Position numbers and translations under genes: made by a program. From a virus, in the IMG/VR virus record IMGVR_UViG_3300035698_029652, positions 1 through 33,485 of that record: 33,485 nucleotides of DNA; one strand, given 5' to 3'. Shown here in pieces: positions 374 to 33,485 of the stretch; position 1 is the first letter of the stretch, and each line of letters starts with the position of its first letter. Under the pieces are notes generated by a model that did no database searches, had not been told where the DNA came from, and saw nothing but the letters and a program-made list of their open reading frames with translations.

Positions 374-387
374 CAAGGAGAAAATTG

Positions 388-2217
388 ATGGAAAATAGAA
401 ACGAGAGAAAACCTAAGATCCCAAAGACCAATAGAATTGGTTTTAAAGGAACAGAGAAGACCATATGTAATGCAGCAAAAACAATGTCAAGAACATTGAT
501 ACCATGTTTAGGTCCATACGGGTCTAATACAATACTTCAAAAGGGTAAGTTGAATCATGAGATAACGAAGGATGGTTTTACTATACTTTCAAACTTATTT
601 TTTTTAGATGAAGGAGAACGTTTAGTATTTGATTTTATAAAGAAGATCTCTCAGAATCAGATGTTAGCTGTTGGAGATGGAACAACTTCTTCAATTATTC
701 TTGCTTCTAAACTTTATGAAGATTTATTTAACTTTAAGAAAGAACTTAAAATCCCAGGAAATATAATGGAAGATGTTATTGATGACATCAAAAAAATACT
801 TACTGGAAAAGTTAAAACTCATGCTAAACACATAGAAGAAGGTGAATTTGATAAACTTTATGATATAGCTCTTATATCTTCTAATTACAAAAAAGAAATA
901 GCTGACATAGTAATTGATACTTATAAAGAAATAGGATTTGGTGGGGTTGCATTCCCTGAACAATCTCTTTCAAAGAAAACAGCTATTAGTATATCTGAGG
1001 GTTATGAAATAAATAGACCTTTAGCTGCTAAGATTTATGCTAATGAAGGTGAAACTATTTGTAGACACAAGAAAGGTAAAAACTTTGTTAGAGTATTTGT
1101 TATTAAAGGAAGATTAGAACTTGCTGATTTAGACCTTCTTGGAGGTCTAATATTTCAGAGAGAAATTAATATGAAGGCAGCAAAGACTTCAGAACCTTCC
1201 CCAGTAGTAGTGGTGTGTTCAGGAATGGATGAAGCAAGTAGAAACTTCTTTAGTACGAATAGAGAAAAAGCTGGTCTTCCCATTGTTCCTGTCTTTGTAC
1301 CATATAAAGGTACACAAGCAGTCGTTGAAGAATATGGTGATTTAATGGCTGTTTTTGGTAATAGATATATTGACAAAGAAGCAGGTGATATCATTCCAAA
1401 AATGGAAGGATTCAAAGAAGCAGACGAATTTCTTGAAAAGTATATGATTGATATTGATGAGATTTATATTAATGACAGTGTAACAAGATTTATTGGTGTA
1501 AAGGGAAATGAAAATGCTCTTACTGCAAGAAAGACTGCAATTAAAGCATATTTGCAACATTTATCTTCAATTCAAGACCATGTTAATAGAAATGATAAAA
1601 TTAATATTACAAAGAGAAGATTGCTTAAGCTTGAGAATAAATTAGCAAAAATTTATATTGGTGGAGACACACAAGAAGAAATTACAAATAAGTTCTTTCT
1701 CCTTGAAGATACAATTCTTGCTGTAAAAGCTGCAATGGAATCTGGTTATGTTCCTGGTGGAAACTTAATTGTCCCTTATCTTATTAATAAAGAAGTGATG
1801 GGAAATAAAGAAATTTACAAACAGTTTAAAGATAAATACTTCTTTCATTTGAATACAGACGAAAAAGTTAGCAAACTCTTTAGTACAATTATAAATTCTT
1901 ACTCTTTTATCTTTGTAAAGATTCTTAATAACTTTTACGGTTATTTTGAGAAAACAGATTTTGCAAAACTTTTTGATAAGGTTAATGAGTGTATTGCAGA
2001 AGGAAAAATAATTAATTTAATGAAAAATGAAGTAATGGAAGATTTTGAAGAAACATCTATAATAAACAGTGCTAAAACTGAAATAGAAATTATTTCTTCT
2101 TCTTGTTCTATTTTAAAACTTTTACTTTCTTCAAACCAAATCATTTTAACTCCTGATGCTTATTACAGAAAGGAGATTATTGAAATGCAGGAATTGAAGA
2201 AGAAAAGGGGTTATTAA
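388..2217 (+). CDS. GroEL-like (Hsp60) chaperonin, phage-encoded
   Basis: The product is a 609-residue ATP-dependent chaperonin, expected to form a ring that folds phage or host proteins in the cytoplasm. Family signatures are visible in order: LGPYG (41-45), ITKDG (59-63), the nucleotide-binding GDGTT (96-100), and LEDTILA...ESGYVPGG near 440-460, matching the GroEL region that carries the ATPase aspartate. The three expected aspartates (TKDG, GDGTT, LED) are all present, so ATPase activity is plausible. The protein is longer than bacterial GroEL (about 548) and lacks the Gly-Met tail; the extra length lies after the ESGYVPGG region. ATG 388 is chosen over TTG 385 because AAGGAG (375-380) lies 7 bases before it. 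No GroES gene is seen in the window. A strong terminator follows. Confidence 0.93.
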   Translation: MENRNERKPKIPKTNRIGFKGTEKTICNAAKTMSRTLIPCLGPYGSNTILQKGKLNHEITKDGFTILSNLFFLDEGERLVFDFIKKISQNQMLAVGDGTTSSIILASKLYEDLFNFKKELKIPGNIMEDVIDDIKKILTGKVKTHAKHIEEGEFDKLYDIALISSNYKKEIADIVIDTYKEIGFGGVAFPEQSLSKKTAISISEGYEINRPLAAKIYANEGETICRHKKGKNFVRVFVIKGRLELADLDLLGGLIFQREINMKAAKTSEPSPVVVVCSGMDEASRNFFSTNREKAGLPIVPVFVPYKGTQAVVEEYGDLMAVFGNRYIDKEAGDIIPKMEGFKEADEFLEKYMIDIDEIYINDSVTRFIGVKGNENALTARKTAIKAYLQHLSSIQDHVNRNDKINITKRRLLKLENKLAKIYIGGDTQEEITNKFFLLEDTILAVKAAMESGYVPGGNLIVPYLINKEVMGNKEIYKQFKDKYFFHLNTDEKVSKLFSTIINSYSFIFVKILNNFYGYFEKTDFAKLFDKVNECIAEGKIINLMKNEVMEDFEETSIINSAKTEIEIISSSCSILKLLLSSNQIILTPDAYYRKEIIEMQELKKKRGY

Positions 2218-3101: not shown

Positions 3102-4547
3102 TTGGCTACAGAAATAATTAAAATTAAAATTCCTAATGGAAGTGAAAGAGTCTTTAATTTGTACAAGCAACGCTTTATGAATTCCGCTGAAGTGATAAGA
3201 GAAACCATGGATACAGTTTTCTCTTGTGGAGAAGATGGTCAACATATTCTTAAAAAATATGTAAAGCTTAAAGCAAAATATACTAAGACAAAAATGACTG
3301 ATGAAGAATTCTTTAAATATTTATTTAGACATGTCTTAGGTAAAGAGTATAATCGAATTTGTAATTCTCATATACAAGAAAAATATACTAAGACTATGTT
3401 AAAAGAAAAGAAAATCGAAAGTTATAGAGTTAAAGTAAAAGGAAAGAAAAAGAAAAGATATAGATTGATAGAAAAGAATGACAAGAAATCTTCAAATAAA
3501 CAGCTCTTAATGAATCACGATCATTGTGTTGACTTGCAAAAGATTTCATTCACTATGAAGTTTACTATTCCAATAATAGCTGACTTTGCAACAACAAAAG
3601 AAAAAGCTGTAGCTGATGAATATTTTATTGATTCATTTATTTGTATAATGGAAAAATATAATAGACATAATATAATTCTTAAACTAAATAAATTTATAAG
3701 TTCAAGAATATTAGCTACAAACTATTCTGATGATGTTATATGGAATTACCTAAGTAACGTATCAGTAGATATTTCCAATATGGTTTATTCAATGTTTAAC
3801 TTTGTAACTACTTTAATACTTTATAAACTCAATGCTACTAAGTTTCCTGTAACGTTTATTCATGGTTCTGTGAAGAATCAACTCAAGTATAAATTCAGGG
3901 AAAAGTTTCCAATACAATATAACCCTAAAATTGGAACTGATGAGGATAGTGATGGTATTACAAGTGCCAACAAAATGGAAATAACACTTGTTAGAAAAGA
4001 TGAAGGATCTTTTGTCCTTAATAATGTTAATAGAGATTTGGAATTTAATAGATTTCTAAAGAATAATAACATCACTGTTACAGAAGAAGAATTAAAACAT
4101 GCGATAAAAACTCTAAAATTAAACAAGTTTCAGAATCAAATACTATTCTTATTTTATAGTAAAATAATGGATAACTTTGATTTATACAAAGTGAATAAAA
4201 AGTTCTACTGTGCTTTATTATTAGCACTTAAGAAATGGTTAGAACAAAAAGAAGCTTATCAAATTTTACCTAAGATATTAACAGGTGTGATTGAAGATAA
4301 AATAAAAAGTAAACTGATGAATAAAAAGAACTTCATTAATAAGCTTATGGATTCAAAAATATTTATTGAAATACAAGATAAGTATTCTTTTATAGGTAGT
4401 CGTTTAGAAAAACGCAATCCTATCTTACAGTTAATAAGTTGGCTGTATTTTAATACTTTTATAGACGAGAACAGTGAAGAGTTGAATTATAGAATAGAAG
4501 ATGCAACATATGAACTTCTTCTATTATTAAGAGATATAAATCTTTAA
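3102..4547 (+). CDS. Large unknown phage protein (481 aa), TTG start
   Basis: I do not recognise this protein. It appears mostly helical and soluble, with a basic lysine-rich stretch near 100-135 (KVKGKKKKRYRLIEK) and a long helical C-terminal half rich in Leu, Lys and Ile. TTG 3102 is chosen because GGAGG (3090-3094) stands 7 bases before it; the next ATG (3177) has no comparable site and would remove a coding-like N-terminus. The gene follows a promoter-like gap and is closed by a hairpin at 4557-4581, so it may be a single-gene unit. No catalytic motif was seen. Confidence 0.8.
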   Translation: MATEIIKIKIPNGSERVFNLYKQRFMNSAEVIRETMDTVFSCGEDGQHILKKYVKLKAKYTKTKMTDEEFFKYLFRHVLGKEYNRICNSHIQEKYTKTMLKEKKIESYRVKVKGKKKKRYRLIEKNDKKSSNKQLLMNHDHCVDLQKISFTMKFTIPIIADFATTKEKAVADEYFIDSFICIMEKYNRHNIILKLNKFISSRILATNYSDDVIWNYLSNVSVDISNMVYSMFNFVTTLILYKLNATKFPVTFIHGSVKNQLKYKFREKFPIQYNPKIGTDEDSDGITSANKMEITLVRKDEGSFVLNNVNRDLEFNRFLKNNNITVTEEELKHAIKTLKLNKFQNQILFLFYSKIMDNFDLYKVNKKFYCALLLALKKWLEQKEAYQILPKILTGVIEDKIKSKLMNKKNFINKLMDSKIFIEIQDKYSFIGSRLEKRNPILQLISWLYFNTFIDENSEELNYRIEDATYELLLLLRDINL

Positions 4548-13300: not shown

Positions 13301-15031
13301 ATGGGAATCACTTACAAAAAGACTACCGTATCCGCACCGCAGAATTCAACTGCAAAGCAGATTAAAGGTGTCTACGATCATTTCTTAGCTGAAGGAATAA
13401 AACTAATGGACACATTAGGTTATCACTCAGTTATGACAGAAGCAGGACTTTTCGAAACATACAAAAATATGCTTTCAGAAGGTTTTGAAGACGCAAACGA
13501 AAAAGCTATCTTTGAAAAGATGCTTATGAACGAACAGGAAGATTACATCAGTGAAGGTGTTAGTATTGGTAATGTTGATCTTCTTGCTCCTATCCGTGGT
13601 ATGATGCTTCGTCAGTATCTTCCTAAACTTGTTGTTAAAGACACTTACCCGATTGAGGCTGTAGAACAACCACATTTCGAGATTTCTTACTACGAACAAT
13701 ATTTTGAGGACGTTGACGGTAATAGAACTAACTTTAAAGATTATTTTAAGTCTTTCTATACAGAGAACAAAGATCCTAGAAATCTTCCTCCTGTTTATGC
13801 AAAGCTTATTCCTCTTACATGTTTCATTAGCGGTTTTGACATTATTTATGGAAAGAATGCTGCAGGTGCTGCACCTAGTGATCTTCCTGGTGATTGGGCT
13901 GATGCAACAACAGTTGCTAAATCTTCATTAACTAATAAAGTTGTTGTTAACAAGGTTTCTATGGACCTTGGCGATGGTGCGGCTCCTGGAGACGTTGGAA
14001 CAATACTTGAAGTAACAGTTAATAAGAAAATTGACTTCAGAGACAACATTGCTTTAGAAGTTGCTGATGAAGATGGAAATACAGATTTCCTCTTTGGTAA
14101 GATTAATAGAAAGAACGGAATGATTACACTTGCGTCAGCTAATGGTGCTCTTGGTGTTGGTAACGGCGTTCCTGTTATAACTCAGATTGCTTTCACAGCT
14201 TATGTAAATAACAAGTGGAATGAGATTGAGACTGGTAACATCGGTTTCGAGATCACAAAGGACGATTACTCTGTACCTGAAGGCGAACACATCAATTCTA
14301 ATATGAATATTGAAGATGTTAAAGACATGAAAGCTATGTGGAACATCGATTCAACTCTTAGAGTTATTGAAATGATGACTGACTTCTTTGCTAGAAAGGT
14401 TGAGTACGAAGGTTGGAAGTTTGCTGTTGACTCTTGGGTTAATAATAATCTTTCTGCAGCTGGTTACTTTGGTACTTTCGATGTACAACCTCCAAGTGCT
14501 TTCGCTGGAAAACCTACTGAGTGGAGAACTGAGCTTACTCGTCTGATTAATTATGTAACAAGTACAATAATGAATCATACAGATTGGCCTGGTGTTACCA
14601 TGGTTCTTGTAGGTAATATCCTTGATCTCGAACTCCTTACAAATCCAACTTGGACATTTGTAGGACAGAACGCAGAGAGAAGTGGATCTAATGTAAGTTA
14701 TAACCTTGGAAACTTCCGTGGCAGCACTGGAATGAATTACAAGCTTGTTTCTTCAAGTAACATCCCACAGGGTGAAATCAGAATGATGGTTTATCCGACT
14801 GGTGATGACGATTATAAAACATATACTTTCTATACTTATAGCTTTGACGTTGTAAGTGATAATAGTTACAGAAATCCGACTCATCAGAATGTACCAAACA
14901 TCATGATGACTAAGCGTTATACTTTCGAAGAATTTACTCCTGTTCAGGGACTTTTCCAGATTATTAATAATGATCTTTCTAACCTCAGTGGATATCAGCC
15001 TCTTCAGGTCGATAATATTGAGACTCCGTAA
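13301..15031 (+). CDS. Major capsid protein (HK97-fold, T4-like group)
   Basis: The product is the main head shell protein, 576 residues. The identification rests on its position after protease and acidic gene, and on overall appearance: a helical N-terminal prosequence, then LLAPIRGMMLRQYLPKL near 94-110 and long beta-rich domains typical of T4-type capsid proteins. Several T4-type cleavage sequences (I/L-x-E before G) occur in the first 90 residues; the best is ISE at 83-85 before GVSIGN, which would remove an 85-residue propeptide. Codons are richer in GC and C-ending triplets than neighbours, consistent with high expression. Start ATG has an AAGGAGA site. A very strong terminator follows. 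Confidence 0.85.
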   Translation: MGITYKKTTVSAPQNSTAKQIKGVYDHFLAEGIKLMDTLGYHSVMTEAGLFETYKNMLSEGFEDANEKAIFEKMLMNEQEDYISEGVSIGNVDLLAPIRGMMLRQYLPKLVVKDTYPIEAVEQPHFEISYYEQYFEDVDGNRTNFKDYFKSFYTENKDPRNLPPVYAKLIPLTCFISGFDIIYGKNAAGAAPSDLPGDWADATTVAKSSLTNKVVVNKVSMDLGDGAAPGDVGTILEVTVNKKIDFRDNIALEVADEDGNTDFLFGKINRKNGMITLASANGALGVGNGVPVITQIAFTAYVNNKWNEIETGNIGFEITKDDYSVPEGEHINSNMNIEDVKDMKAMWNIDSTLRVIEMMTDFFARKVEYEGWKFAVDSWVNNNLSAAGYFGTFDVQPPSAFAGKPTEWRTELTRLINYVTSTIMNHTDWPGVTMVLVGNILDLELLTNPTWTFVGQNAERSGSNVSYNLGNFRGSTGMNYKLVSSSNIPQGEIRMMVYPTGDDDYKTYTFYTYSFDVVSDNSYRNPTHQNVPNIMMTKRYTFEEFTPVQGLFQIINNDLSNLSGYQPLQVDNIETP

Positions 15032-15063
15032 TTTCTTATTAGTTAATGTTTGATGAATTAAAA

Positions 15064-15105
15064 ACCCCTATATCTTCGGATATAGGGGGTTCTTTCTTTT
15101 TTCTT
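15064..15105 (+). terminator. Strong UUCG-tetraloop terminator after the capsid gene
   Basis: ACCCCTATATC (15064-15074) pairs with GATATAGGGG (15079-15088) closing a TTCG loop, followed by TTCTTTCTTTTTTC. It is one of the most stable hairpins of the window. Confidence 0.92.
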
Positions 15106-15131
15106 ATTAATATTTTTTAACAAATTCTTAA

Positions 15132-15139
15132 TATAAATA
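15132..15139 (+). promoter_or_regulatory. Late-type promoter box TATAAATA before the terminase gene
   Basis: An exact match to the T4 late consensus lies 16 bases before ATG 15156. The leader would be very short, with the ribosome binding site AAGGGA close to the start site. Confidence 0.4.
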
Positions 15140-15155
15140 ATATAAGGGAAAGCTA

Positions 15156-15701
15156 ATGGGTGTACGTAATAAGGCGGAAACAAAAGAAATTTTAAAAAAG
15201 TCTGGTGTATACGATTTAATAAAAGAGAGAGAAAAAAAGAAAAAAATACGAAGAAAGGAGTTTGTTAAAAAGAAAAAAAGTGATTCCAAACTACTAAAAG
15301 AAGAAGCTAAGAAGGCGATGAGTGATGTTTCTTATCTAGCAGAAAAAGTAAAAAGCGTTAAGAAAAAGAAAGGGGTAAAATATTTTATTCATATTGGTAC
15401 GACCAATACAAGTGCTTTAAAACTTAGTAAACGACTTAAGAAGATGGGCGTTAAGAATAATAAGTTCTTTCTAGCTCTGTACGATAAAAAATTAGCAGAT
15501 GTTAATCCCTTCAGTGATAAATTAGGAGACGAGACTAAACTTAGAATACATAATGAAATAAGAATTAATCCTTGGTATTACTACAGAGAAATATTTAGAA
15601 TACCAGAACCAGGTGGTAATACACGTTTTATTTTTGATATTGGAAATATAAGTCAATTATATATTCAACATGCAAATTTAAATCAGATTAAAGAACAGCC
15701 T
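15156..15701 (+). CDS. Terminase large subunit, exon 1
   Basis: This exon encodes residues 1-182 of the DNA-packaging motor ATPase/nuclease. The first 70 residues are lysine-rich and helical. NPWYYYREIFRIPEPGG near 146-162 matches the adenine-binding region before Walker A in T4 gp17-type terminases. The last codon before the splice site is CCT (15699-15701), proline. Without splicing the frame ends at TGA 15720-15722 after six unrelated residues, giving a truncated, inactive product. Joined to exon 2 (16202) the frame continues as proline then RQTGKT. ATG 15156 is preceded by AAGGGA. Confidence 0.88.
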
Positions 15702-16201
15702 AGACACATTTGGGCGGTATGATAGTAATATCATATCATAACCTTTCTAATTGCTGGAAACCCCTTAGAGCCTTAAGAGCTACAACATAATCGGTAACGA
15801 TAAATGTGATACGCTTGAAAATCTTAAGGATTGGGCAATCAGCAGCTAAGTTTCTAAATTACTGATGTTAATATTTAATTAAAATTTCTTATAAGATAAT
15901 TAAGAAATTAAGTTCAAATATTCTTCAGAAGCTTTTTGATAATTTAGAAAAAAGTTCATCGACTATCGAAAAATATAAAATCTTTTTGGTATTAAATGGT
16001 AAAAATAAATATTGTAAAAAATATTATTTATATCATAATAAAGATTATTATATTGAGTAGAGTACACCTTAAGCTTATGAAGGTGGAAATGGAAGGCATC
16101 CTTTTAATAAAAGGATGAAGATATAGTCAAGCCTTGTATGAGAGTACAAGCAGTTCGTAAGAGAACGTGTATGAAAGTTGCGTTTCATATAGAATAAAGC
16201 G
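15702..16201 (+). ncRNA. Group I intron (self-splicing, subgroup IA-like) in the terminase gene
   Basis: The 500-base intron separates the codons just before Walker A. Conserved core elements are readable in order: P (ATTGCTGGAAACCCC, about 15749-15764), Q (AATCGGTAACGA, 15789-15800), R (GGGCAATCAGCAGCTAAG, about 15833-15850) and S (GAAGATATAGTC, 16117-16128), with a P8-like hairpin CATCCTTTT/AAAAGGATG just before S. The 5' splice site follows a U (T15701), and exon GCCU pairs with GGGC at 15712-15715 to give the canonical U-G wobble of P1. The intron ends in G16201. A 210-base AT-rich insertion (about 15855-16065) lies between R and the P8 hairpin. No intact homing endonuclease gene is present. 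Confidence 0.93.
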
Positions 16202-17842
16202 AGACAGACAGGTAAGACTTGGACAGCGATTGCTTTCTTTGATTGGGTATACCATTATGGTACTAATAATTCAGAAATAGCTTTCCTGAATAAAGACTTT
16301 GGAGATTCTAAGTTAAATATTGCAAGGTTGAAATCTGTAAAAGATCTCTTGCCTGATTGGTTAGTTATGAGACATCAAAAAGATAATGATCATATTGAAT
16401 ACATAAAATCATATATGAGTAAGAATCATATTGATGCAAAACCAGCACCTATTTCTTTTAAACAAGCCGATAAGCTTGGTCGTGGTTTAACTATGCCTTT
16501 ATCATGGTATGATGAATATGCTTTCTTAAAATATAATGATGTTATTTATAAAGCATCTGCGTTTGCATTATCAAAAGCTTCAGAAGCAGCTTCTAAAAAT
16601 AAGAAAGCGTACGGTATGTTAAAAACAACAACACCAAATAATCTTGACACAGAAGAAGGAAAATGGTGTAAGAATTGGATTGATAAGTCCGCTGTATGGG
16701 ATATATCAATGCTTGATTGGAAAATAAAAGAACTTAGAAAATATGTTAGACAAAATTCTGAAAATAACTTTATCCATGTTAAGTTTACTTGGCAGGAATT
16801 AGGTAAGACTGAAAAGTGGTATGAAAAACAGTGTCAGCTTGTTGGTTATGATAGAGCTACTATAAAAAGAGAACTTGATCTTAAATGGTCATATGCTACT
16901 GACGTTTCACCATTTGAAGAAGATGAACTTGAATTATTAGAGAAAAACTTAGTTGAACATAAAAACATTATTAAATTAGAAGTTGATAAAAAAAAATACT
17001 TGTTATACGTGTATGGACCTATTAACCCAATGTATCCTTATTTGTTAGCAGTTGATACTTCAGGTGGTGAAAAGAAGGATTTATCATCAATCGCTTTTAT
17101 TGATCCTCAAACTAGAAAGACAGTTGCAATTCTTTTTAGTAATAAGATTACAATTCCTAGAATGCTAAAGTTAATTTATTGGATAATGACAAAATGGTTA
17201 ATGAATTCTTTTACTTCAATAGAAAGAAATAACTACGGTCTTGCTATCATTCAAGGAATTTTAGATAACAGTCCAGACAATAAATACCACGTATTAAAAC
17301 AAAGGTTATTTTATATTTATAAAGAATCGGAAAATTTAGATACAAAGAAAGTAGACGGAAGTAAGATAGGTATTTCAAAACAAAAGTCTAAAAAGAAAAG
17401 AACGAAGAAGTATGGTGTTGATACAACTCCAAGAAGTAGGCAAAAAATGTTTGATGATCTGTTTTATTACATAAGAGAAGAACCAGAATTAATAGTGAGC
17501 GGTTTTATCTTTGAAGATATTAAGAATCTAGAAACAAAAACAAGTGGAAAAATTGAGCATAGATCAGGTAGCCATGATGATAGATTGTTATCTTGGTTGA
17601 TTGGTCAATTTACTCTAGATCAAAATACGATTAAATACTTTTTTAAAAGACGTAAATTAAGTGAATCAACTAAAGGTGGATCTGTTGGAGGAGAGAACAT
17701 GAGTAATATATTTAATTTAAATAAAAAAAATGGAGAATTTTCTGAGGTAACAGAAAAATTAATAGAAAACGTGGAAAAAGAAGAAAAGGCAAAAAATAAA
17801 AATTCTTCTTTTTTTAATACAATAATAAATCTAAATAAATAA
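16202..17842 (+). CDS. Terminase large subunit, exon 2 (ATPase and nuclease)
   Basis: This exon encodes residues 183-728 of the spliced 728-residue protein. It begins with Walker A RQTGKT (183-188). Walker B WYDEYAF follows with D286 and E287, and TTTPNN near 325 fits the ATPase coupling motif. The RNase H-like nuclease domain shows D467 in AVDTSGG, E523 in ERNNYG and D641 in SHDDRL, the expected metal-binding acids for cutting DNA at the end of packaging. Without splicing only a truncated start inside the exon (TTG 16328) would be available, which would lose Walker A. A lysine-rich C-terminal tail of about 50 residues follows the nuclease domain. The motor docks on the portal encoded at 24680-27067. 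Confidence 0.92.
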   Translation, partial: RQTGKTWTAIAFFDWVYHYGTNNSEIAFLNKDFGDSKLNIARLKSVKDLLPDWLVMRHQKDNDHIEYIKSYMSKNHIDAKPAPISFKQADKLGRGLTMPLSWYDEYAFLKYNDVIYKASAFALSKASEAASKNKKAYGMLKTTTPNNLDTEEGKWCKNWIDKSAVWDISMLDWKIKELRKYVRQNSENNFIHVKFTWQELGKTEKWYEKQCQLVGYDRATIKRELDLKWSYATDVSPFEEDELELLEKNLVEHKNIIKLEVDKKKYLLYVYGPINPMYPYLLAVDTSGGEKKDLSSIAFIDPQTRKTVAILFSNKITIPRMLKLIYWIMTKWLMNSFTSIERNNYGLAIIQGILDNSPDNKYHVLKQRLFYIYKESENLDTKKVDGSKIGISKQKSKKKRTKKYGVDTTPRSRQKMFDDLFYYIREEPELIVSGFIFEDIKNLETKTSGKIEHRSGSHDDRLLSWLIGQFTLDQNTIKYFFKRRKLSESTKGGSVGGENMSNIFNLNKKNGEFSEVTEKLIENVEKEEKAKNKNSSFFNTIINLNK

Positions 17843-24679: not shown

Positions 24680-27067
24680 TTACATTTCTTCGTCTTCTGA
24701 ATCAAGGTTACTTTCTTCTTCTTCTGCAGTTTTTTTATTAATTTCTTTAATAACTTCTTTGTTATCTAAAATACCTTTAATAACTTCTTGTAGGTAATCA
24801 TCACCCATATCCCAAGGAAGGTTAGGAAGAAGTTCTCTTTTAATCTTATTTTTTAAAGCAGTTCTAACTGATTCTCTATTATCGTCATTAACTAAAAAAG
24901 AACCGTCAACAACTTTTTCAACTGCATCAGGTAATAACATAATAGCCATTTCTTCAGCTATCGTTTCAGCTTTAGTTATTTCTTCTTCCATATTCATCAT
25001 ACTAAGAGAAATTGGAGCTAAGAAGTAACATCTAATGTCGTCAGCTTTGACTTCTTTATTCTTCTTACTATCATCTTTCTTTTCTTCTATTTCTGTATCA
25101 TCTTCATATTCATTTCTATAAAGAGTAGTTATAAAAGTATTTAATGCAGGTGTAAAGGCTTTCTGAGCTGCAAGGACTCTTCTTACAAATTTCTGATTCT
25201 GTAAGGTAAGTGTCTTAGCTAATTCGACTTCATTTAAAGATTCAATAAAAGAAGAAGGAACTCCCGTACCATTGATTATAAACTTATTTAAGAATTCCAA
25301 GAATTCATTATTCATATCAGCTTCTTGACCTTCAAGAGTTTCCATTTCAACTGGTTTGTCTCCATCAAATGAAGGCATATAATAATCTTTAAACTGTCCA
25401 ACTGATTTCATGACGTAATCTACATCATCGAAGTCAGACATCTTAATTTCTTTATTTTTCAGATCATTAATAAACGAAGAAATAACTTGTTCTTGATCTT
25501 TTTCTAAACCAGCTTCTATATACCATAATCTCTTATCTGCTGAACGAGTGATCTTCATCATAAGTTGAGTTAAGAGGGTAATTAAATAGATCTTAGCGAA
25601 GAACATTATGTATTTAAAAATAGAATCACCATATACGTTGTCTTCATTATTTGGAACCCAATGAATTATTTCTTCGGGTGGAATGAAAAGAATTCTCATA
25701 CCATCGGATTTAAGTTTATCTTCTGATTCCAAGTAAGAAAGGATAATTCTTTTAAATTGTTTATTCTTAACAATAAATTTTCTATCTATCTTTTCAACTA
25801 TAAGGTCTGATAAGATATTAAAAATAAATTTTTCTTTTTCCCTAGCAGCCATTCCATCTTTCTTATTTCCAGATTCAGCTGTATTAATAATATCTTTTAT
25901 ATCAGAAGAAATAGAAGTAAAATTATTATAAGCTAAACTAGAATCCCTATAGATATTTTCAATATAGTAATAACCGTAGCATATGCCATTAAATTCAAGC
26001 TTAACAACTTTCTTTGGATCGAGCTTTTTAATTACACTTCCTTTTATAAGTTTTAGATCTTCATCATCTTCTTTACCTTGTTTCTTTTCTGCTTCGGAAA
26101 GAATTTGAGTTGAACCTAATTTTTCGTTTTGTTTAGTTGCCAACATCTTTAAATCATCTTCTTCGAAGAGTTGTAATGTTTTATCTTCTAATACAAAATT
26201 CTTATTTACTATCTTCAATAGTTTAGTTTTAATTTCACTAACAACATCTTTCTTCTTTTTGTTATCACTTTCTTTGAAATTTTTAATTAAAATCGATTCA
26301 CTTAGTGATTTCTCAAAAGTGTCACCTTGAAAAATTCCTGTGTTGTCTTCTTTTAATATATTAAGTTCTTCGTTTATCTTGTTACCATAGTAGTTATCAT
26401 AACCACGTTTTCTAACTAATTCTTCTAAAGAGTCACCTATCTTTTTTATAAAAAGAAAAGAATCACCTAATTTTAAAGACTCTTGAATGTATGATCTTAT
26501 TTTTTCTTCAACAGCATATTTCTTTTCGAGCTCTTTTGTTCTCTTATTAAAAACCTTTATACTCGCTTCTCTATCTTCTGTAGCCATAGTAGTTTCTGTT
26601 TCAACAAAGTATCTTATTGCTTTTTTAGAAAAATCATCTGGATTGATAATGTTATCTGTATAAGTATTGAGTATTTCTTTAAGGTAAGGAATCAAGGATA
26701 CGATTATTTCGTAATTATCATATGCCTTAATCCTACCCATTTCTCTTAGCATCATAGAGCTTATAGAAGAACTACTTACTTCTTTCTCGAATATACCCTT
26801 TATATCATCATTATTAGCTAACCCTCTTTTAGTATTTGCTCGCCTCAGGTGGTTATCTACTGAATTTTGTCTTTGAAAAGTAGTATTGAAGAAACCCATT
26901 ATATCATCATTAGAATTAGGAGCTATCTTCTTTTTAATATTTCTTAGCTTGTTGAAAATCTTTTCCATCTCTTCAACTTCGTTCTCATCTTTCTTCTCAA
27001 CGCCAAAAAATTCTTTTTTTAATGTACTAACACGTTTATCAAGATCTTTTTCTTTTTTAGAAACCAT
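24680..27067 (-). CDS. Portal protein (T4 gp20-like)
   Basis: The twelve-fold ring at the head vertex through which DNA is packaged and ejected. The 795-residue protein shows portal features in its middle and C-terminal parts: IPPEEIIHWVPNNEDNVYGDS (near 465-485), KITRSADKRLWYIEAG (near 506-521), and GTGVPSSFIESLNEVELAK (near 607-625), a pattern shared with T4-type portals. The first 130 residues and the segment 230-370 are charged and lysine/glutamate-rich extensions not present in T4 gp20 (524). ATG 27067 has AGAGGAAG upstream. It lies on the strand opposite to capsid and tail genes. The acidic tail EEEESNLDSEDEEM is likely flexible. Confidence 0.85.
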   Translation of the reverse strand: MVSKKEKDLDKRVSTLKKEFFGVEKKDENEVEEMEKIFNKLRNIKKKIAPNSNDDIMGFFNTTFQRQNSVDNHLRRANTKRGLANNDDIKGIFEKEVSSSSISSMMLREMGRIKAYDNYEIIVSLIPYLKEILNTYTDNIINPDDFSKKAIRYFVETETTMATEDREASIKVFNKRTKELEKKYAVEEKIRSYIQESLKLGDSFLFIKKIGDSLEELVRKRGYDNYYGNKINEELNILKEDNTGIFQGDTFEKSLSESILIKNFKESDNKKKKDVVSEIKTKLLKIVNKNFVLEDKTLQLFEEDDLKMLATKQNEKLGSTQILSEAEKKQGKEDDEDLKLIKGSVIKKLDPKKVVKLEFNGICYGYYYIENIYRDSSLAYNNFTSISSDIKDIINTAESGNKKDGMAAREKEKFIFNILSDLIVEKIDRKFIVKNKQFKRIILSYLESEDKLKSDGMRILFIPPEEIIHWVPNNEDNVYGDSIFKYIMFFAKIYLITLLTQLMMKITRSADKRLWYIEAGLEKDQEQVISSFINDLKNKEIKMSDFDDVDYVMKSVGQFKDYYMPSFDGDKPVEMETLEGQEADMNNEFLEFLNKFIINGTGVPSSFIESLNEVELAKTLTLQNQKFVRRVLAAQKAFTPALNTFITTLYRNEYEDDTEIEEKKDDSKKNKEVKADDIRCYFLAPISLSMMNMEEEITKAETIAEEMAIMLLPDAVEKVVDGSFLVNDDNRESVRTALKNKIKRELLPNLPWDMGDDYLQEVIKGILDNKEVIKEINKKTAEEEESNLDSEDEEM

Positions 27068-27114: not shown

Positions 27115-27831
27115 TTAAAAATTAATAAATTTTATCTTTTTCATTATTCTACACCAACCAAAGTCAGTATAAATTCTAGCTACATTATAGCTATTTGCTT
27201 TAGAAAAAATAATATAACAATCTTTAATCTTATTATTGAACGTGGAGAAAGGAAACAAGCTACGAGATATTATAAGCTTATGTTCTTTATGTTTCAAAGT
27301 AAAAGTATTATTTAATCTCATCTCTTTAAATATCTCTTCAGTTATTTTTACTTTATTATCATCCCTTCTATCTTTCTTTATATCATTTACTAACTGATGG
27401 TGTTTAAATCTTTCTTCATCTGTTATTTTTTTCTCATTCTCATAGAATATCATTTTATCTTTTGAATAATAAAATCTCATTCCCTTCTTTTTAATTCGTA
27501 TACTATCCGTTGCTTTCTTTATTTCCTTATTTTTAAAATAGTTGAATAACTCATATCCTTGCATTTTAAAATTAACATCTCCTTCTAAATCTAAGAATAA
27601 ATCTATTCCTTGTTTTAGGTTAGTGTATGTCCTATTTGTTAAATGTTTTAAGACTTGTTCTGAAGGGAGATCATAGTTAATAACAACATCTTTTCCATTA
27701 GAGCAGAAAGACTTACTTAAAACATAATCTCCACTTTCAGATTCATTTTTCATTATTTGATTCAAGTCATAAATTAACTTGAATACTTTTTTAAAATTAT
27801 CACCTTGAAATTTTTTAAGCTGCTTCTTCAT
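27115..27831 (-). CDS. Unknown protein overlapping the polymerase N-half gene (weak sliding-clamp candidate)
   Basis: The gene encodes 238 residues; its start overlaps the last 17 bases of the preceding polymerase gene, so the two are translationally coupled. The chain alternates short strands and helices, with KVKITEEIFKEM (near 157-168), FTLKHKEHKLIIS (near 173-185) and a final strand-rich stretch. Size (T4 gp45 has 228) and linkage to a DNA polymerase would suit a sliding clamp, but no diagnostic motif is visible and this is only a suggestion. No typical PCNA-like motif was found, and the basic character is less usual for a clamp. Confidence 0.7.
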   Translation of the reverse strand: MKKQLKKFQGDNFKKVFKLIYDLNQIMKNESESGDYVLSKSFCSNGKDVVINYDLPSEQVLKHLTNRTYTNLKQGIDLFLDLEGDVNFKMQGYELFNYFKNKEIKKATDSIRIKKKGMRFYYSKDKMIFYENEKKITDEERFKHHQLVNDIKKDRRDDNKVKITEEIFKEMRLNNTFTLKHKEHKLIISRSLFPFSTFNNKIKDCYIIFSKANSYNVARIYTDFGWCRIMKKIKFINF

Positions 27832-29647
27832 TGTCTTTCTCTATCTCTTTAATTATATCGTTTAATTCTGGAAGGTCATAAGCAAATTTACCTAATTGGA
27901 CGAAATCTTCTGCAATGATTTTTTCTATAAAGTAAGGTGCTAGATCAAGGAAGAATTTTTCTTCTTCTATCTTCTTAGTTCTCTTATTAACTTTTCTTAT
28001 AACATCATCCTTACCCCAAATAAGTTTTCCATATTGTGTTCCCATTTCAATATTAAACGCAATAATAATTGAAGGATACAACGCTCTTAGATCGAGATCA
28101 ATAACTCCCCTAAAATATTTACTTAAAAGCTTGCCTAAGAATTTCCAACCATTTTCTTCAATAAGATTTGGATCCCCACAGAAAGCACCGAATAATTTTT
28201 CATGTTCATAGAGGTTTAAACCTTCTCCACCGTAACTTGCATTATGGTTATTACTTATTACATAATTTTTATCTCTATAAAATTTTCTAGCTAGATTCTT
28301 TAATGAAACAGTCTTCTTTAGTGCTTTTTCATAACGAGTAGAAGATACCTTTCCAATATTCCAAATAAGCTGAGTATCACCGACCTTCTTTTCAATTTTA
28401 ACCTGAAGCATTACATCTTGAATATTATAGTCAAGAAAAGATATAGGGTTAAGATAAAGCCACTGGTACATTTCTACACCCTCTGGTAATTCATCTTTTT
28501 CCTGTTTTACTATAAGTTCTCCAGTTCTGTCAAGAGACCATGAATCTTGTTTCTTTCCTTTTCTTAGATTAGCAAAATTCTGTTGTTGACAACCCCATTG
28601 TGTATAAGAAGCACATTTGAAGAAAGAACCTCTGTTTGCTAAATCCTGATTTCTATTATCTTGTTTGAAATAAAAGAAATCTATACCTTTGTTTCTAAAA
28701 TCTTTAGGAATGATTAAGTTTCTAGCAGTCTTACTAAACTTATAGAAATCTCCATAATAACTATTTCCTTCTTCTTTAGGAACTCCTTTTACTTTGGAAG
28801 CACGATTAAGAAGAGTCTTCACATCAAAGGGTGCATTCCAAGCTAACATAACATCTGGACGATCTACTTCATTAACTTGATTGAAGAATCCTTCTATTAA
28901 ATCAAACTCATCATCATAAAATTTAAGATTTAACTTAGTCATACCGTCTTTCTTATATCTTTTCCTTATTTTCTTTTTATATTTAACTCTATACTCTTTA
29001 TCTTTCTTTAACTTATAAAGCTTTTTTAATTTTGGGTATTTTCTTACTTCATCTTTAGTATAATTTAATAAGATAAATGAAGTCATAACTCCTTCAAAAA
29101 AGTATGAAAGCATACATACAGGGGCTTTAGCTTCGTTCTCATCAGGAAACTCACCTATTTTCATGCTGTCACACTCAATATCAAAGAAACCAGGCTGAAC
29201 CTTATCCTTTGAAAGACCGTATTTGTTAGCTACTAAATCCATATAGTAGTCCTCAATATCAATATCACTATCATGAACATTAGCATTCAAATGAACTTGT
29301 TTCATAGAATTATAACTCTTTGAACCTATACAATCTTCAATAAAGTCTTCATATTCACTTCCTAAGTTTTTAGCTATATTCTTTTCTAAGTCTTTAAACC
29401 TAGAAGTTTTTTCATCACAATCGTCTAAAGGTACATAAAACTTATGTTTTTTTAATTGTTTTTCTTGTTTGCTTATTTTATATTTTATAAAGGGTTCATC
29501 TATTACTTTAATTTTCTTTTTACCATTTTCTTTCAAGATAAGAAACAGTTGATCTTTATATTTGTTATGCTTAGAAGGCTTAACGTAAAAAGAGTTTACA
29601 ACCATGACGTTTTTATCTTTTGAAAGTTCTAAACTTTGTCCTGCCAA
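27815..29647 (-). CDS. Family B DNA polymerase, N-terminal half (3'-5' exonuclease and palm motif A)
   Basis: The protein has 610 residues and carries the proofreading exonuclease and the first half of the palm. Exo I FFDIECD (near 158-164), Exo II WNAPFD (near 268-273), Exo III YNIQD (near 408-412) and motif A DLDLRALYPSI (near 517-527) are visible. It then stops about 80 residues after motif A with an acidic helical tail (DLPELNDIIKEIEKDNEEAA). Motifs B and C are missing here and lie in the gene upstream (29874-31874), so the order of the halves is reversed. Start is TTG 29647, with AGGAG 7 bases upstream. Both halves must associate to give an active enzyme. Confidence 0.88.
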   Translation of the reverse strand: MAGQSLELSKDKNVMVVNSFYVKPSKHNKYKDQLFLILKENGKKKIKVIDEPFIKYKISKQEKQLKKHKFYVPLDDCDEKTSRFKDLEKNIAKNLGSEYEDFIEDCIGSKSYNSMKQVHLNANVHDSDIDIEDYYMDLVANKYGLSKDKVQPGFFDIECDSMKIGEFPDENEAKAPVCMLSYFFEGVMTSFILLNYTKDEVRKYPKLKKLYKLKKDKEYRVKYKKKIRKRYKKDGMTKLNLKFYDDEFDLIEGFFNQVNEVDRPDVMLAWNAPFDVKTLLNRASKVKGVPKEEGNSYYGDFYKFSKTARNLIIPKDFRNKGIDFFYFKQDNRNQDLANRGSFFKCASYTQWGCQQQNFANLRKGKKQDSWSLDRTGELIVKQEKDELPEGVEMYQWLYLNPISFLDYNIQDVMLQVKIEKKVGDTQLIWNIGKVSSTRYEKALKKTVSLKNLARKFYRDKNYVISNNHNASYGGEGLNLYEHEKLFGAFCGDPNLIEENGWKFLGKLLSKYFRGVIDLDLRALYPSIIIAFNIEMGTQYGKLIWGKDDVIRKVNKRTKKIEEEKFFLDLAPYFIEKIIAEDFVQLGKFAYDLPELNDIIKEIEKDNEEAA

Positions 29648-29672
29648 TTCTTACTCCTATTTTCAAATTAAT

Positions 29673-29678
29673 ATTATA
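29673..29678 (-). promoter_or_regulatory. Candidate -10 box before the polymerase N-half
   Basis: Reading leftward, TATAAT stands 25 bases before the TTG start, followed by ATTAATTTGAAAATAGGAG. It could give the N-half its own promoter, separate from the C-half. No -35 box is clear. Confidence 0.3.
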
Positions 29679-29744
29679 AAAGTGATAACTATAAAATAAC
29701 TTATAGCTTGCCTATACCCTAATCTCTTATTTAAGGAGAAGTCG

Positions 29745-29851
29745 ATGTTAACTATTTATTTAAATCTCAAAAGAGAGTTCATGTTCCAGATGTTGCCAAG
29801 AATAAAATAAACCTTCAACAAAAGAGATTGTTTGTTGCCCTTGAGGGCTAA
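29745..29851 (+). pseudogene. Small opposite-strand reading frame, broken or frameshifted
   Basis: ATG 29745 has an ideal ribosome binding site (AAGGAG, 29733-29738, 6 bases away). The frame ends after 21 codons at 29808-29810. In the -1 frame a coding-like stretch (KRVHVPDVAKNKINLQQKR) continues to TAA 29849-29851. One extra A in the AAAA run at 29769-29772 would join them into a 35-residue protein ending VALEG. It lies between the two polymerase halves on the other strand, which is odd for a working gene; it may be the scar of an insertion, a real small gene with a frame error in the sequence, or a chance open frame. Confidence 0.35.
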
Positions 29852-29873
29852 ATGCCCAGAGGTATAACTTTTT

Positions 29874-31874
29874 TTATACTTCCAAAACGTTTGAGAAAAA
29901 ACTACTTGCACCAACTTTGAGGCTTTTTATATTAAATGCTTCCAATATAATCAAGAAATGTCTTAAATTATCGTCTGCGGCAGTTCTAGCATCAATATAT
30001 GGAGTAATCCATAATGGTACTTTCTTTAAAGAAATAGGCATTGAAATAGTAGCAACTCCAAATCTTGAGAGTTCATCATTTAAGAATACAGTATCTTTTA
30101 ATTTTTTATAGATTGCTGGATTTTTTTTCTTGATAGGAAGAATACTTTCAAGAGTAGGAAGGTTAACTTTGTACATAGCACATTTTGTTCCAGGAATAAT
30201 TGGATTAGTTGGATAAAGAGCATTCCAAACAATAGCACCTCTAACCTGATTTTCTCTAAAAGGAAACTTATATGAGTCTATAGCATTGAATCTTTTATTC
30301 TCAGAATATTTCATTGAACGTTCTTCTAATATTTCTTTCATTATTTGTTCTCTGAATGCATAGAGTCGTTTTAAAATATTACCCATGTCAAAATCTTCTT
30401 TTAAAATTATTTCTTCGTCTATGAGCTTTGAGAAGAATTCCCTTACATCTTTATTCACAGTAGATTTTTTCAACTGCAATCCAACATAATTAATTTCAGG
30501 TACAATCTTTGATGGATCTTCTTTATCAGTAAAGATAGTTCCTTCCTGTGCTACAACACTTGTTACATATTGTTTCTTATTTCTAGTGAGGATAATCTTA
30601 TCTATAAAGAATTCATTCTTCATATGAATTTTAGGTCTCTTACTTTCTTCAACGTTCATAACAGTCGTTAGGTTCCAGAATAATTGGTCTACGTATTTAG
30701 CACAGACATATGTTAATATATTAGATACCGAAACATTTTTTTTCGTATCTTTTACTTTTACTTTTAATACATCTCTAGTATAATCAACAAACGGTCCAAG
30801 ATAAACAAATGTTGAATCGGTATCAATGGTAAGAATAAATTTTCTTTTATAATTCTCAACTGATTTCCATCTATAATCAAAAAAATAATAATATGCACAA
30901 TATCTTTCTATTAAATCCCAAAAATAATCGATATGTTCTAAAGTCTCTTTATCCATTTTATCTTCTTTTCTATAAATATAATTATCTATCTTTAAAAGAT
31001 CTTTAGTCGAAAGATATTTAATTAGAGAAGCTATGTGGGGTAATTTAATAAATTCATAGAAGTTACATTTAAAGTAAAGTCTTATTAATTCTCTCTTACT
31101 CAGTGTATCAAACATCTGTTCGATCTTCTCATCTACCATATAATCATGGTTCATTATTTGACTCATAAGCCTTTCTTTTACTATATTTTTAGTAATTCTA
31201 ACTACAAGCTTTCTATCTTGCATAACTTCTTTAAAGTCTTTAGGTTCTTTTTCTTCGATTAAAGTTCTATGAATAAAGTGAACTAAATGTTCTGATTTTT
31301 CAAATATAATATTACCAAATAATGCTTCAAATCCTAGGACTGCCGAGGTTGTAATAACTCGCCCCGTCCAAGTTGTTGCGTTACCAGTATAAGGATTAAA
31401 GAATATAGAATTTTCCTCGCCCATAGCTCCATAATAAGAGTTAGCATACTCTTTATAAGTTTTCTGGAACCCGTTATTTAACTCAAAACCGTCATCATCT
31501 TTAGCATCTTTACACTTAAACATCTTTCCCTTATAAACACTTCTTGTGTCTAAAAAATATTGAAGCATATCAGCTGAAAGATTTTTAACATCTTGTTTAA
31601 AGAAACTACCAGAACCAGTTATAATCGGTTTCTTCTCATAAATCCAGTCATTTAATTTAAGAAGACTGATTTTATAATTCACGTCTTCATAATTGTTTCT
31701 TAATATAACATCTTTGTTTTGAAATTTCTTCTTAGCATTCTTCTTAATAATTTTTCTCAACTCTTTTTTATCTTTGTCAGGGTAAAGTAATTGCAATTCT
31801 GTCATCATTTGTTTTAAATACTTCTTAAAAAATATCGAATCAAACAGTTCGTTTTTCTTTTTCTCTTTAATCAC
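29874..31874 (-). CDS. Family B DNA polymerase, C-terminal half (fingers, palm motifs B and C, thumb)
   Basis: The protein has 666 residues and holds the remaining polymerase domains. LQYFLDTRSVYKGKMF (near 104-119) fits the fingers, KTYKEYANSYYG (near 139-150) is motif B, ILTIDTDSTF (near 347-356) is motif C with the two metal-binding aspartates, and TRNKKQYVTSV (near 425-435) matches the KKxY motif. The first 60 residues are a lysine-rich helical extension that could pair with the acidic tail of the other half. Start is GTG 31874, with AAGGAG 6 bases upstream. The gene precedes the N-half by 226 bases, i.e. the halves are in permuted order. No intein motifs are seen at either break. Confidence 0.88.
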   Translation of the reverse strand: MIKEKKKNELFDSIFFKKYLKQMMTELQLLYPDKDKKELRKIIKKNAKKKFQNKDVILRNNYEDVNYKISLLKLNDWIYEKKPIITGSGSFFKQDVKNLSADMLQYFLDTRSVYKGKMFKCKDAKDDDGFELNNGFQKTYKEYANSYYGAMGEENSIFFNPYTGNATTWTGRVITTSAVLGFEALFGNIIFEKSEHLVHFIHRTLIEEKEPKDFKEVMQDRKLVVRITKNIVKERLMSQIMNHDYMVDEKIEQMFDTLSKRELIRLYFKCNFYEFIKLPHIASLIKYLSTKDLLKIDNYIYRKEDKMDKETLEHIDYFWDLIERYCAYYYFFDYRWKSVENYKRKFILTIDTDSTFVYLGPFVDYTRDVLKVKVKDTKKNVSVSNILTYVCAKYVDQLFWNLTTVMNVEESKRPKIHMKNEFFIDKIILTRNKKQYVTSVVAQEGTIFTDKEDPSKIVPEINYVGLQLKKSTVNKDVREFFSKLIDEEIILKEDFDMGNILKRLYAFREQIMKEILEERSMKYSENKRFNAIDSYKFPFRENQVRGAIVWNALYPTNPIIPGTKCAMYKVNLPTLESILPIKKKNPAIYKKLKDTVFLNDELSRFGVATISMPISLKKVPLWITPYIDARTAADDNLRHFLIILEAFNIKSLKVGASSFFSNVLEV

Positions 31875-31976
31875 TATATTCTCCTTGAATAATTTCCATA
31901 ATAATTTTTTGTTTATCAGTTTGTACTATTTAAAATTTAGTTTGAACATTAATTTAATTATAAACGGGAGGAAATC

Positions 31977-32666: not shown

Positions 32667-32670
32667 AAAG

Positions 32671-32705
32671 GAAGGATATATCATTGTGATATATCCTTCT
32701 TTAAA
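32671..32705. terminator. Bidirectional terminator between convergent genes
   Basis: GAAGGATATATCA (32671-32683) and TGATATATCCTTC (32687-32699) pair perfectly over 13 bases around TTG, with TTTAAATT to the right and, on the minus strand, TTTTTATAC to the left. Confidence 0.88.
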
Positions 32706-33485
32706 TTATTCTTCTGGCTTAGAAACACATTTAGTTACTTTTATTTTTTTAGCAAAGTTATCAAGAAAATTAGTTACATCATAAGTATCTGTTAAGTTAT
32801 TCAATTCGAGTAATCTTCTAGTTCCATATTTAATACTTTGTTTACCTGAAACGAAGTAATCATCTATAAAAGAAGTTGCAGTATTGAGATCATTGAAACT
32901 GTCTGTTAAATAAAGTTTTCTGTATTTTTTTGCTCTGTCTAGATCAATTTGTGTAATACCACTTATCTTAATCTTTTCAATTAAAGCTAATACTTCACTT
33001 TCTACTCTAGGTATATTTTCTTTTGAAGTGCTTATATCAATTGTAAATAATCCTCTGTGTTTTATAGGTTCACTATAAGCACTTATTGCATAACAAAGTC
33101 CTAACTCATCTCTTATTTTTCTATAAAGAACTGAAGATAAACCAGAAGCTAAAATATTAGAAAGAGTTTCAGTATCAAAATTATTCAAATGATAATCTTT
33201 ATTATTATGGGCTTCCATTGTAAAAAGAATTTTTTGTATTCTATCTTCTTCTATTTCTAGATTTTCTAAATTTAATTTTTGTGCGAATAAATTATTTTCT
33301 TCATTTTGTATATAATTTCTATCTATATCATCTAAGTTATCTATTCCGTTTATCGGATAACCCATTTTTATTATTTCTTCATTAAATGTTTCTCTTACGA
33401 TTTGTCTTGCTTCTATCTCATTAAAGTTACCTGCAACTGCAAATACAACGTCTCTAGTAGCTCGTCTATAAAAGTTCTTCATCTC
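32706..33485 (-). CDS. M16-family (insulinase/pitrilysin-like) metallopeptidase, C-terminal part (partial)
   Basis: About 259 residues of a larger protein; the frame runs past the window edge, and the Met at 33482 is probably internal. FYRRATRDVVFAVAGNFN fits the segment of M16 enzymes that follows the zinc-binding half. Then come FTMEAHN, LSNILASGLSSVLYRKIRDE with LGLCYAISAYSE (near 107-134), and GITQIDLDRAKKYR (near 191-204), matching the family's second domain (the R/Y region that grips substrate). The zinc motif HxxEH must lie to the right of the window. M16 peptidases degrade peptides or process leader sequences. A phage copy is unusual; it could trim a virion or host-targeted protein. 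Confidence in family is high, in role low. Confidence 0.78.
   Translation of the reverse strand, partial: EMKNFYRRATRDVVFAVAGNFNEIEARQIVRETFNEEIIKMGYPINGIDNLDDIDRNYIQNEENNLFAQKLNLENLEIEEDRIQKILFTMEAHNNKDYHLNNFDTETLSNILASGLSSVLYRKIRDELGLCYAISAYSEPIKHRGLFTIDISTSKENIPRVESEVLALIEKIKISGITQIDLDRAKKYRKLYLTDSFNDLNTATSFIDDYFVSGKQSIKYGTRRLLELNNLTDTYDVTNFLDNFAKKIKVTKCVSKPEE

What the first reader, a model, noticed from the sequence alone, without database searches (positions are those of the whole stretch)
27815..31874. Family B DNA polymerase split into two genes in permuted order (C-half before N-half)
On the leftward strand the gene with motif B (NSYYG), motif C (DTDS) and KKxY comes first, and the gene with Exo I-III and motif A (LYPSI) comes second, 226 bases later. 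Split phage polymerases are known (e.g. 43A/43B in some T4 relatives), but those keep N-before-C order as far as I know. The C-half has a lysine-rich N-terminal extension and the N-half an acidic helical tail, which could hold the halves together. A simple origin is tandem duplication of a whole gene followed by loss of the outer parts. Both genes keep good ribosome binding sites and all catalytic residues, so both appear functional.
Basis: partly seen in the sequence, partly recalled or inferred. Interest (0 to 1): 0.88.

Follow-up and report, generated by a model that had tools for sequence, protein, structure and literature searches.

The report
Two-gene DNA polymerase of AR9-like phage
This giant-phage fragment encodes its DNA-copying enzyme as two separate genes, with the gene for the back half first; the split, and in several relatives the same order, already occur in known giant phages such as AR9 and phiKZ, so it is mostly an ordinary new member of a known group in which the two genes happen to sit side by side.

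Summary
On the minus strand a 666-aa gene (31874-29874; motif B, motif C, KKxY) precedes a 610-aa gene (29647-27815; Exo I-III and motif A), with a 226-bp spacer. Profile and fold comparisons tile one RB69/T4-type family B polymerase: the N-half profile ends at RB69 residue 435 and the C-half model begins at 447.

It is not a new architecture. The same split, at the same place, is found in AR9/PBS1, BpSp, Staphylococcus jumbo phages, phiR1-37, LPJP1, many IMG/VR contigs, and distantly in phiKZ, EL, a Vibrio phage and a Fusobacterium phage. The AR9 literature already names both subunits. C-before-N order on one strand is already the order in AR9, PBS1, BpSp, Staphylococcus phages and phiKZ (9-35 kb apart); other relatives have N-before-C or opposite strands. 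No fused relative within this family turned up.

What is particular here is close linkage (226 bp) in a deep, roughly 30%-identical lineage. Tandem duplication in this lineage is not supported, because the split is far older than the adjacency. Most likely the two products assemble into one proofreading replicase; assembly was not tested here. New member of a known kind.

The parts
29874..31874 (-). C-half (catalytic subunit): fingers, palm strands with motif C, thumb; 666 aa, GTG start
   Evidence: PF20286 E=2.8e-35, PF00136 E=1.5e-8; phrog_2927 E=5.6e-80; AF2 model (mean pLDDT 83.4) aligns to RB69 gp43 447-898, Z 15.1
31425..31466 (-). Motif B region (C-half residues 137-150, QKTYKEYANSYYGA)
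   Evidence: alignments
30813..30824 (-). Motif C DTDS (C-half residues 351-354)
   Evidence: invariant in 18 rows
30567..30578 (-). KKxY motif (C-half residues 433-436)
   Evidence: K434 and Y436 invariant in 18 rows
27815..29647 (-). N-half: N-terminal domain, 3'-5' exonuclease and first palm segment with motif A; 610 aa, TTG start
   Evidence: phrog_3011 E=1.7e-42; A4 profile matches RB69 gp43 99-435, E about 1e-26; AF2 model aligns to RB69, Z 28.5
29168..29182 (-). Exo I DIECD (N-half residues 156-160)
   Evidence: invariant D/E
28823..28837 (-). Exo II NAPFD (N-half residues 271-275)
28415..28429 (-). Exo III YNIQD (N-half residues 407-411)
28067..28099 (-). Motif A DLDLRALYPSI (N-half residues 517-527)
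29648..29873 (-). 226-bp spacer between the halves; no Rfam match, folds no better than shuffles, no significant repeat of it elsewhere in the window
31902..31913 (-). Putative late promoter, AR9 type AACA-N6-T[AG], 39 nt before the C-half start; none found within 110 nt before the N-half
   Evidence: AR9 consensus from PMC5312081
27115..27831 (-). 238-aa gene whose ATG overlaps the end of the N-half; weak match to AR9 gp128 and same position
   Evidence: blastp E=0.014 plus synteny
24680..27067 (-). Portal protein, same downstream neighbour as in AR9, BpSp, MarsHill, SA1
   Evidence: PF07230 E=3.2e-11; blastp to an AR9 gp127 fragment E=3e-16

Best explanation
This is the two-subunit, T4/RB69-like family B replicative DNA polymerase typical of phiKZ/AR9-type jumbo phages, in a divergent, uncultured AR9-like phage. 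One polypeptide carries the N-terminal domain, the proofreading exonuclease and the motif A strand of the palm. The other carries the fingers, the motif C strands of the palm and the thumb. Inferred, not shown: the products bind each other after translation and the motif A segment completes the palm, so that the catalytic acidic residues (some from each chain) come together and one proofreading replicase forms. Shown: all motifs are present, the halves tile RB69 gp43 (sequence profile of the N-half to 435; model of the C-half from 447), the breakpoint is constant in the family, and the halves have diverged in parallel. The C-before-N order is one of several arrangements in a group whose two genes have moved independently; here they are neighbours.
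For: Motifs and families. Complementary coverage of RB69 gp43: N-half profile to 99-435, C-half model to 447-898. In the N-half model residues 458-596, which hold motif A, have pLDDT under 50, as expected of a palm segment that needs its partner. Same split in AR9, PBS1, BpSp, Staphylococcus phages, phiR1-37, LPJP1, in IMG/VR relatives, and in phiKZ, EL, a Vibrio and a Fusobacterium phage, whose exonuclease gene also carries motif A (DLD....YP in phiKZ). [quoted passage not shown] Distances of the two halves correlate across 17 phages, r=0.97, 0 of 10000 permutations. Precedent for assembly: phage 25 43A and 43B co-purify and have polymerase activity (PMC2988022). AR9-type neighbourhood and promoters; RNA polymerase, GroEL, portal and tail sheath genes.
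Against: No heterodimer prediction or biochemistry could be run. The parallel divergence would also follow from plain co-inheritance. The window is a 33-kb fragment, so a further polymerase elsewhere in the genome cannot be excluded, although no fused polymerase of this type was seen in the relatives examined.
Confidence: 0.93

Rival explanations
1. The order arose in this lineage by tandem duplication of a whole polymerase gene followed by loss of the outer parts.
For: It would give C-half then N-half with a short spacer, as seen.
Against: The identical split is shared by phages about 30% identical or less, including phiKZ and EL, while order and spacing vary (at least 6 changes). The spacer shows no evident polymerase remnant in its translated frames and no significant repeat.
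Confidence: 0.04
2. Assembly artefact: two contigs joined wrongly between the genes, so the adjacency is false.
For: Reads are not available; the contig end carries an M16 peptidase fragment unlike anything in the phage collection searched.
Against: C-before-N on one strand and N-half > ~240-aa gene > portal match AR9, BpSp, MarsHill and SA1. The spacer has no significant repeat in the window that could mislead an assembler.
Confidence: 0.05
3. The halves are joined into one protein by a split intein, or by a trans-splicing or permuted intron.
For: Introns and homing endonuclease genes are frequent in genes of this group, so splicing elements are at hand.
Against: Both halves end and begin where those of relatives do. 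No intein match and no Rfam intron match. There is no room after the N-half, where the next gene overlaps, and only 102 bp before the C-half, holding a promoter-like motif and a ribosome site.
Confidence: 0.02
4. The halves are decayed copies and a complete polymerase lies elsewhere in the genome.
For: The window is only a fragment.
Against: All catalytic residues and both reading frames are intact; in relatives with whole genomes such as AR9, phiR1-37 and phiKZ the searches found these two genes, not a fused one.
Confidence: 0.03

Closest known systems
Bacillus phage AR9/PBS1 DNA polymerase (gp151 catalytic + gp131 exonuclease/partial catalytic)
   Same: Same split site, same C-before-N order on one strand, same downstream neighbours (about 240-aa gene, portal), similar late promoter
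   Different: About 15 kb and many genes between the halves in AR9 instead of 226 bp; 30-32% identity. In AR9 three further genes lie between the small hypothetical gene and the N-half
Staphylococcus jumbo phages (MarsHill, SA1, S6) and Bacillus phage BpSp
   Same: Same split and C-before-N order, N-half followed by a hypothetical gene and portal
   Different: 9-20 kb apart; several of these genes carry additional interruptions
phiKZ-group divergent PolB (Pfam PF20286; phiKZ gp50; 'group 1' of Iyer et al. 2021, PMC7824862)
   Same: C-half lacks an exonuclease; exonuclease encoded elsewhere, and (shown here) with motif A
   Different: Very low identity; phiKZ halves 35 kb apart; EL, Vibrio and Fusobacterium phage halves on opposite strands
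Split gene 43 (43A/43B) of Aeromonas phages 25 and 44RR
   Same: Two-gene family B polymerase; phage 25 subunits co-purify and are active (PMC2988022)
   Different: Separate split in T4-like phages tied to a homing endonuclease or intercistronic insert; breakpoint not compared here

Membership tests
Two-subunit family B DNA polymerase of phiKZ/AR9-type jumbo phages | Catalytic subunit related to PF20286 / phrog_2927 with motifs B and C but no exonuclease domain | tested here: met
Two-subunit family B DNA polymerase of phiKZ/AR9-type jumbo phages | Separate subunit with 3'-5' exonuclease motifs plus motif A | tested here: met
Two-subunit family B DNA polymerase of phiKZ/AR9-type jumbo phages | Breakpoint between motif A and the fingers (RB69 about 435-447) | tested here: met
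Two-subunit family B DNA polymerase of phiKZ/AR9-type jumbo phages | Subunits assemble into an active polymerase | not testable with these tools
   no complex prediction or assay available
AR9-like jumbo phage lineage | Multisubunit RNA polymerase genes and AR9-type late promoters AACA-N6-T[AG] | tested here: met
   RNA polymerase match at 3102-4547; motif before 7 of 28 genes, the best of 208 motif variants, next best 4
AR9-like jumbo phage lineage | N-half, then a ~240-aa gene, then portal | tested here: met
AR9-like jumbo phage lineage | Groups within the AR9 clade in a tree | tested here: inconclusive
   window is a long branch with no supported sister
Split gene 43 of Aeromonas T4-like phages | Halves in N-before-C order with a homing endonuclease gene or intercistronic insert between them | tested here: not met
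   here C precedes N; the N-before-C order of the Aeromonas phages is from general knowledge, the insert from PMC2988022

The most novel reading that the evidence does not exclude
The close C-before-N pair seen here preserves the ancestral arrangement of the phiKZ/AR9 group, so the split polymerase of all these phages began as a permuted neighbour pair (for example through tandem duplication of an intact gene) and later dispersed.
Probability: 0.07. Interest if true: 0.5.

Novelty: new member of a known kind. Interest (0 to 1): 0.22.

Why it matters
It adds a deep branch to a known two-gene replicase and shows by comparison that the separate 'exonuclease' of these phages, phiKZ included, also carries the motif A part of the polymerase active site. 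That predicts that neither protein alone can polymerise, and offers a small, neighbouring gene pair convenient for co-expression. It does not reveal a new kind of polymerase.

Tried and rejected
Scans with the single window proteins found no close relative in IMG/VR; only alignments reached relatives, all about 25-37% identical. The genome-contig scan with the C-half alignment gave nothing. Rfam over the window and over the spacer gave nothing; RNA folding of the spacer is no better than shuffles, z=0.04. Searching phiKZ-type records with phrog_2062 found only the Fusobacterium phage; the A4 profile was needed. The tree does not place the window with support, so the ancestral order could not be resolved. 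The paper was an identifier guessed wrongly and was not used; PMC3201878 is not held. Orders for G010, G027 and AH12 assume circular genomes.

Full report
Observation. The two genes are present as described. On the minus strand the C-half (31874-29874, 666 aa, GTG start) is followed after 226 bp by the N-half (29647-27815, 610 aa, TTG start), each with a good ribosome binding site. The C-half carries motif B (KTYKEYANSYYGA), motif C (DTDS) and KKxY; the N-half carries Exo I (DIECD), Exo II (NAPFD), Exo III (YNIQD) and motif A (DLDLRALYPSI). The C-half matches PF20286, divergent family B DNA polymerase, at E=2.8e-35 and phrog_2927 at 5.6e-80; the N-half matches phrog_3011 at 1.7e-42. The catalytic residues are invariant in alignments of 18 C-halves and 15 N-halves.

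One enzyme in two pieces. A profile of N-halves matches RB69 gp43 residues 99-435 (E about 1e-26). The AlphaFold2 model of the C-half (18 rows, mean pLDDT 83.4) aligns to RB69 gp43 447-898 (Z 15.1, rmsd 3.8, 381 residues). The N-half model aligns to RB69 from residue 1 (Z 28.5, rmsd 3.1, 344 residues). The sequence break therefore lies between motif A and the fingers. In the N-half model, residues 458-596, which include motif A, have pLDDT below 50. That fits a palm segment that folds only with its partner, but could also reflect the shallow alignment of 10 rows; the structural alignment of that stretch is not to be trusted, so the N-half boundary rests on the sequence profile.

The split is known and old. 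tblastn finds both halves as separate genes in AR9, PBS1, Goe21, BpSp, about ten Staphylococcus jumbo phages, phiR1-37 and LPJP1. [quoted passage not shown] the AR9 transcription paper says the same in its text (PMC5312081). Iyer et al. 2021 describe the phiKZ-type ('group 1') polymerase as divergent and without a fused exonuclease, which is encoded elsewhere (PMC7824862). Here I find that this 'exonuclease' also carries motif A in phiKZ (77960-79876, DLD....YP), EL (58758-60563), Vibrio phage 2 TSL-2019 (207301-209139) and Fusobacterium phage JD-Fnp1 (177568-179994). So the same break appears to run through the whole group. N-halves end and C-halves begin at closely similar places across the set.

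Gene order. Order C then N on one strand: window (226 bp), BpSp (about 9 kb), AR9/PBS1 (about 15 kb), Staphylococcus phages (16-20 kb), phiKZ (about 35 kb). Order N then C: G014/G026 (about 3 kb), G009, G017, G022, G016/G029 (28-35 kb), G004/G005 (about 77 kb), with G010 and G027 also so if circular. Opposite strands: phiR1-37, LPJP1, G002, G023/G028 (about 1.3 kb), G030, EL, Vibrio 2 TSL and JD-Fnp1. Parsimony needs at least six changes of arrangement on a tree of 17 phages. Pairwise distances of the two halves correlate at r=0.97 (0 of 10000 permutations), as expected if they are inherited and evolve together. The window is a long branch with about 33% best identity and no supported sister.

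Surroundings. Downstream of the N-half come a 238-aa gene that overlaps it and then the portal, the same order as in BpSp, MarsHill and SA1 and, with a few genes between, in AR9. The AR9 late promoter AACA-N6-T[AG] lies within 60 nt upstream of 7 of 28 genes, the best of 208 motif variants (next best 4); with a 110-nt search it lies 39 nt before the C-half and is absent before the N-half. The N-half may be read from the upstream promoter or from an unrecognised early promoter; this is inference. The window also encodes GroEL, an RNA polymerase segment, primase, RNase H, prohead protease, major head protein, terminase and tail sheath relatives, which together fit an AR9-like jumbo phage.

Mechanism. 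Shown: two intact complementary halves, constant breakpoint, parallel divergence. Inferred: assembly after translation into one proofreading replicase in which each chain brings part of the catalytic acidic residues. Closest experimental precedent: 43A and 43B of Aeromonas phage 25 co-purify and have polymerase activity (PMC2988022). The family-specific beginning of the C-half (residues 1-73) and end of the N-half (about 541-610) flank the break and have no RB69 counterpart in the alignments; they are candidates for docking, untested.

Rivals. Recent tandem duplication is disfavoured because the split is older than the adjacency. Misassembly is disfavoured by synteny and by the lack of a significant repeat in the spacer, but reads are needed. 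Intein or trans-splicing is disfavoured by the constant ends and the absence of intein, intron or room for one. Decayed copies are disfavoured by intact motifs.

Verdict. A real and cleanly described feature, but a new member of a known kind; the only particular is the close C-before-N linkage.

Noticed in passing
15156-15722 and 16328-17842 (+): The terminase large subunit appears in two pieces with about 600 bp between them; an intron or other insert is likely, though Rfam gave no match.
   Followed up: no
32706-33485 (-): C-terminal part of an M16-type peptidase at the contig end; no match in the phage collection or in 13 related records, with a terminator-like hairpin on both strands at 32668-32702. 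It may be a true phage gene or a joined host fragment.
   Followed up: partly
window, upstream regions: AR9-type late promoter motif AACA-N6-T[AG] about 30-45 nt before many genes.
   Followed up: partly
phiKZ AF399011 77960-79876 (L083), EL (L084), Vibrio 2 TSL-2019 (L085), JD-Fnp1 (L086): The exonuclease gene of phiKZ-type phages also carries motif A of the polymerase.
   Followed up: yes
IMGVR_UViG_3300025000_000053 (G029): 14074-15996 and 241929-244192: Two C-half copies in one record, the second interrupted.
   Followed up: no
L068:227-2824 (G030) and L086:569-2995 (JD-Fnp1): N-halves with long extensions (865 and 808 aa), at the start in G030 and at the end in JD-Fnp1.
   Followed up: no
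385-2217 (+): GroEL-type chaperonin gene, phrog_5725 E=5.3e-86.
   Followed up: no
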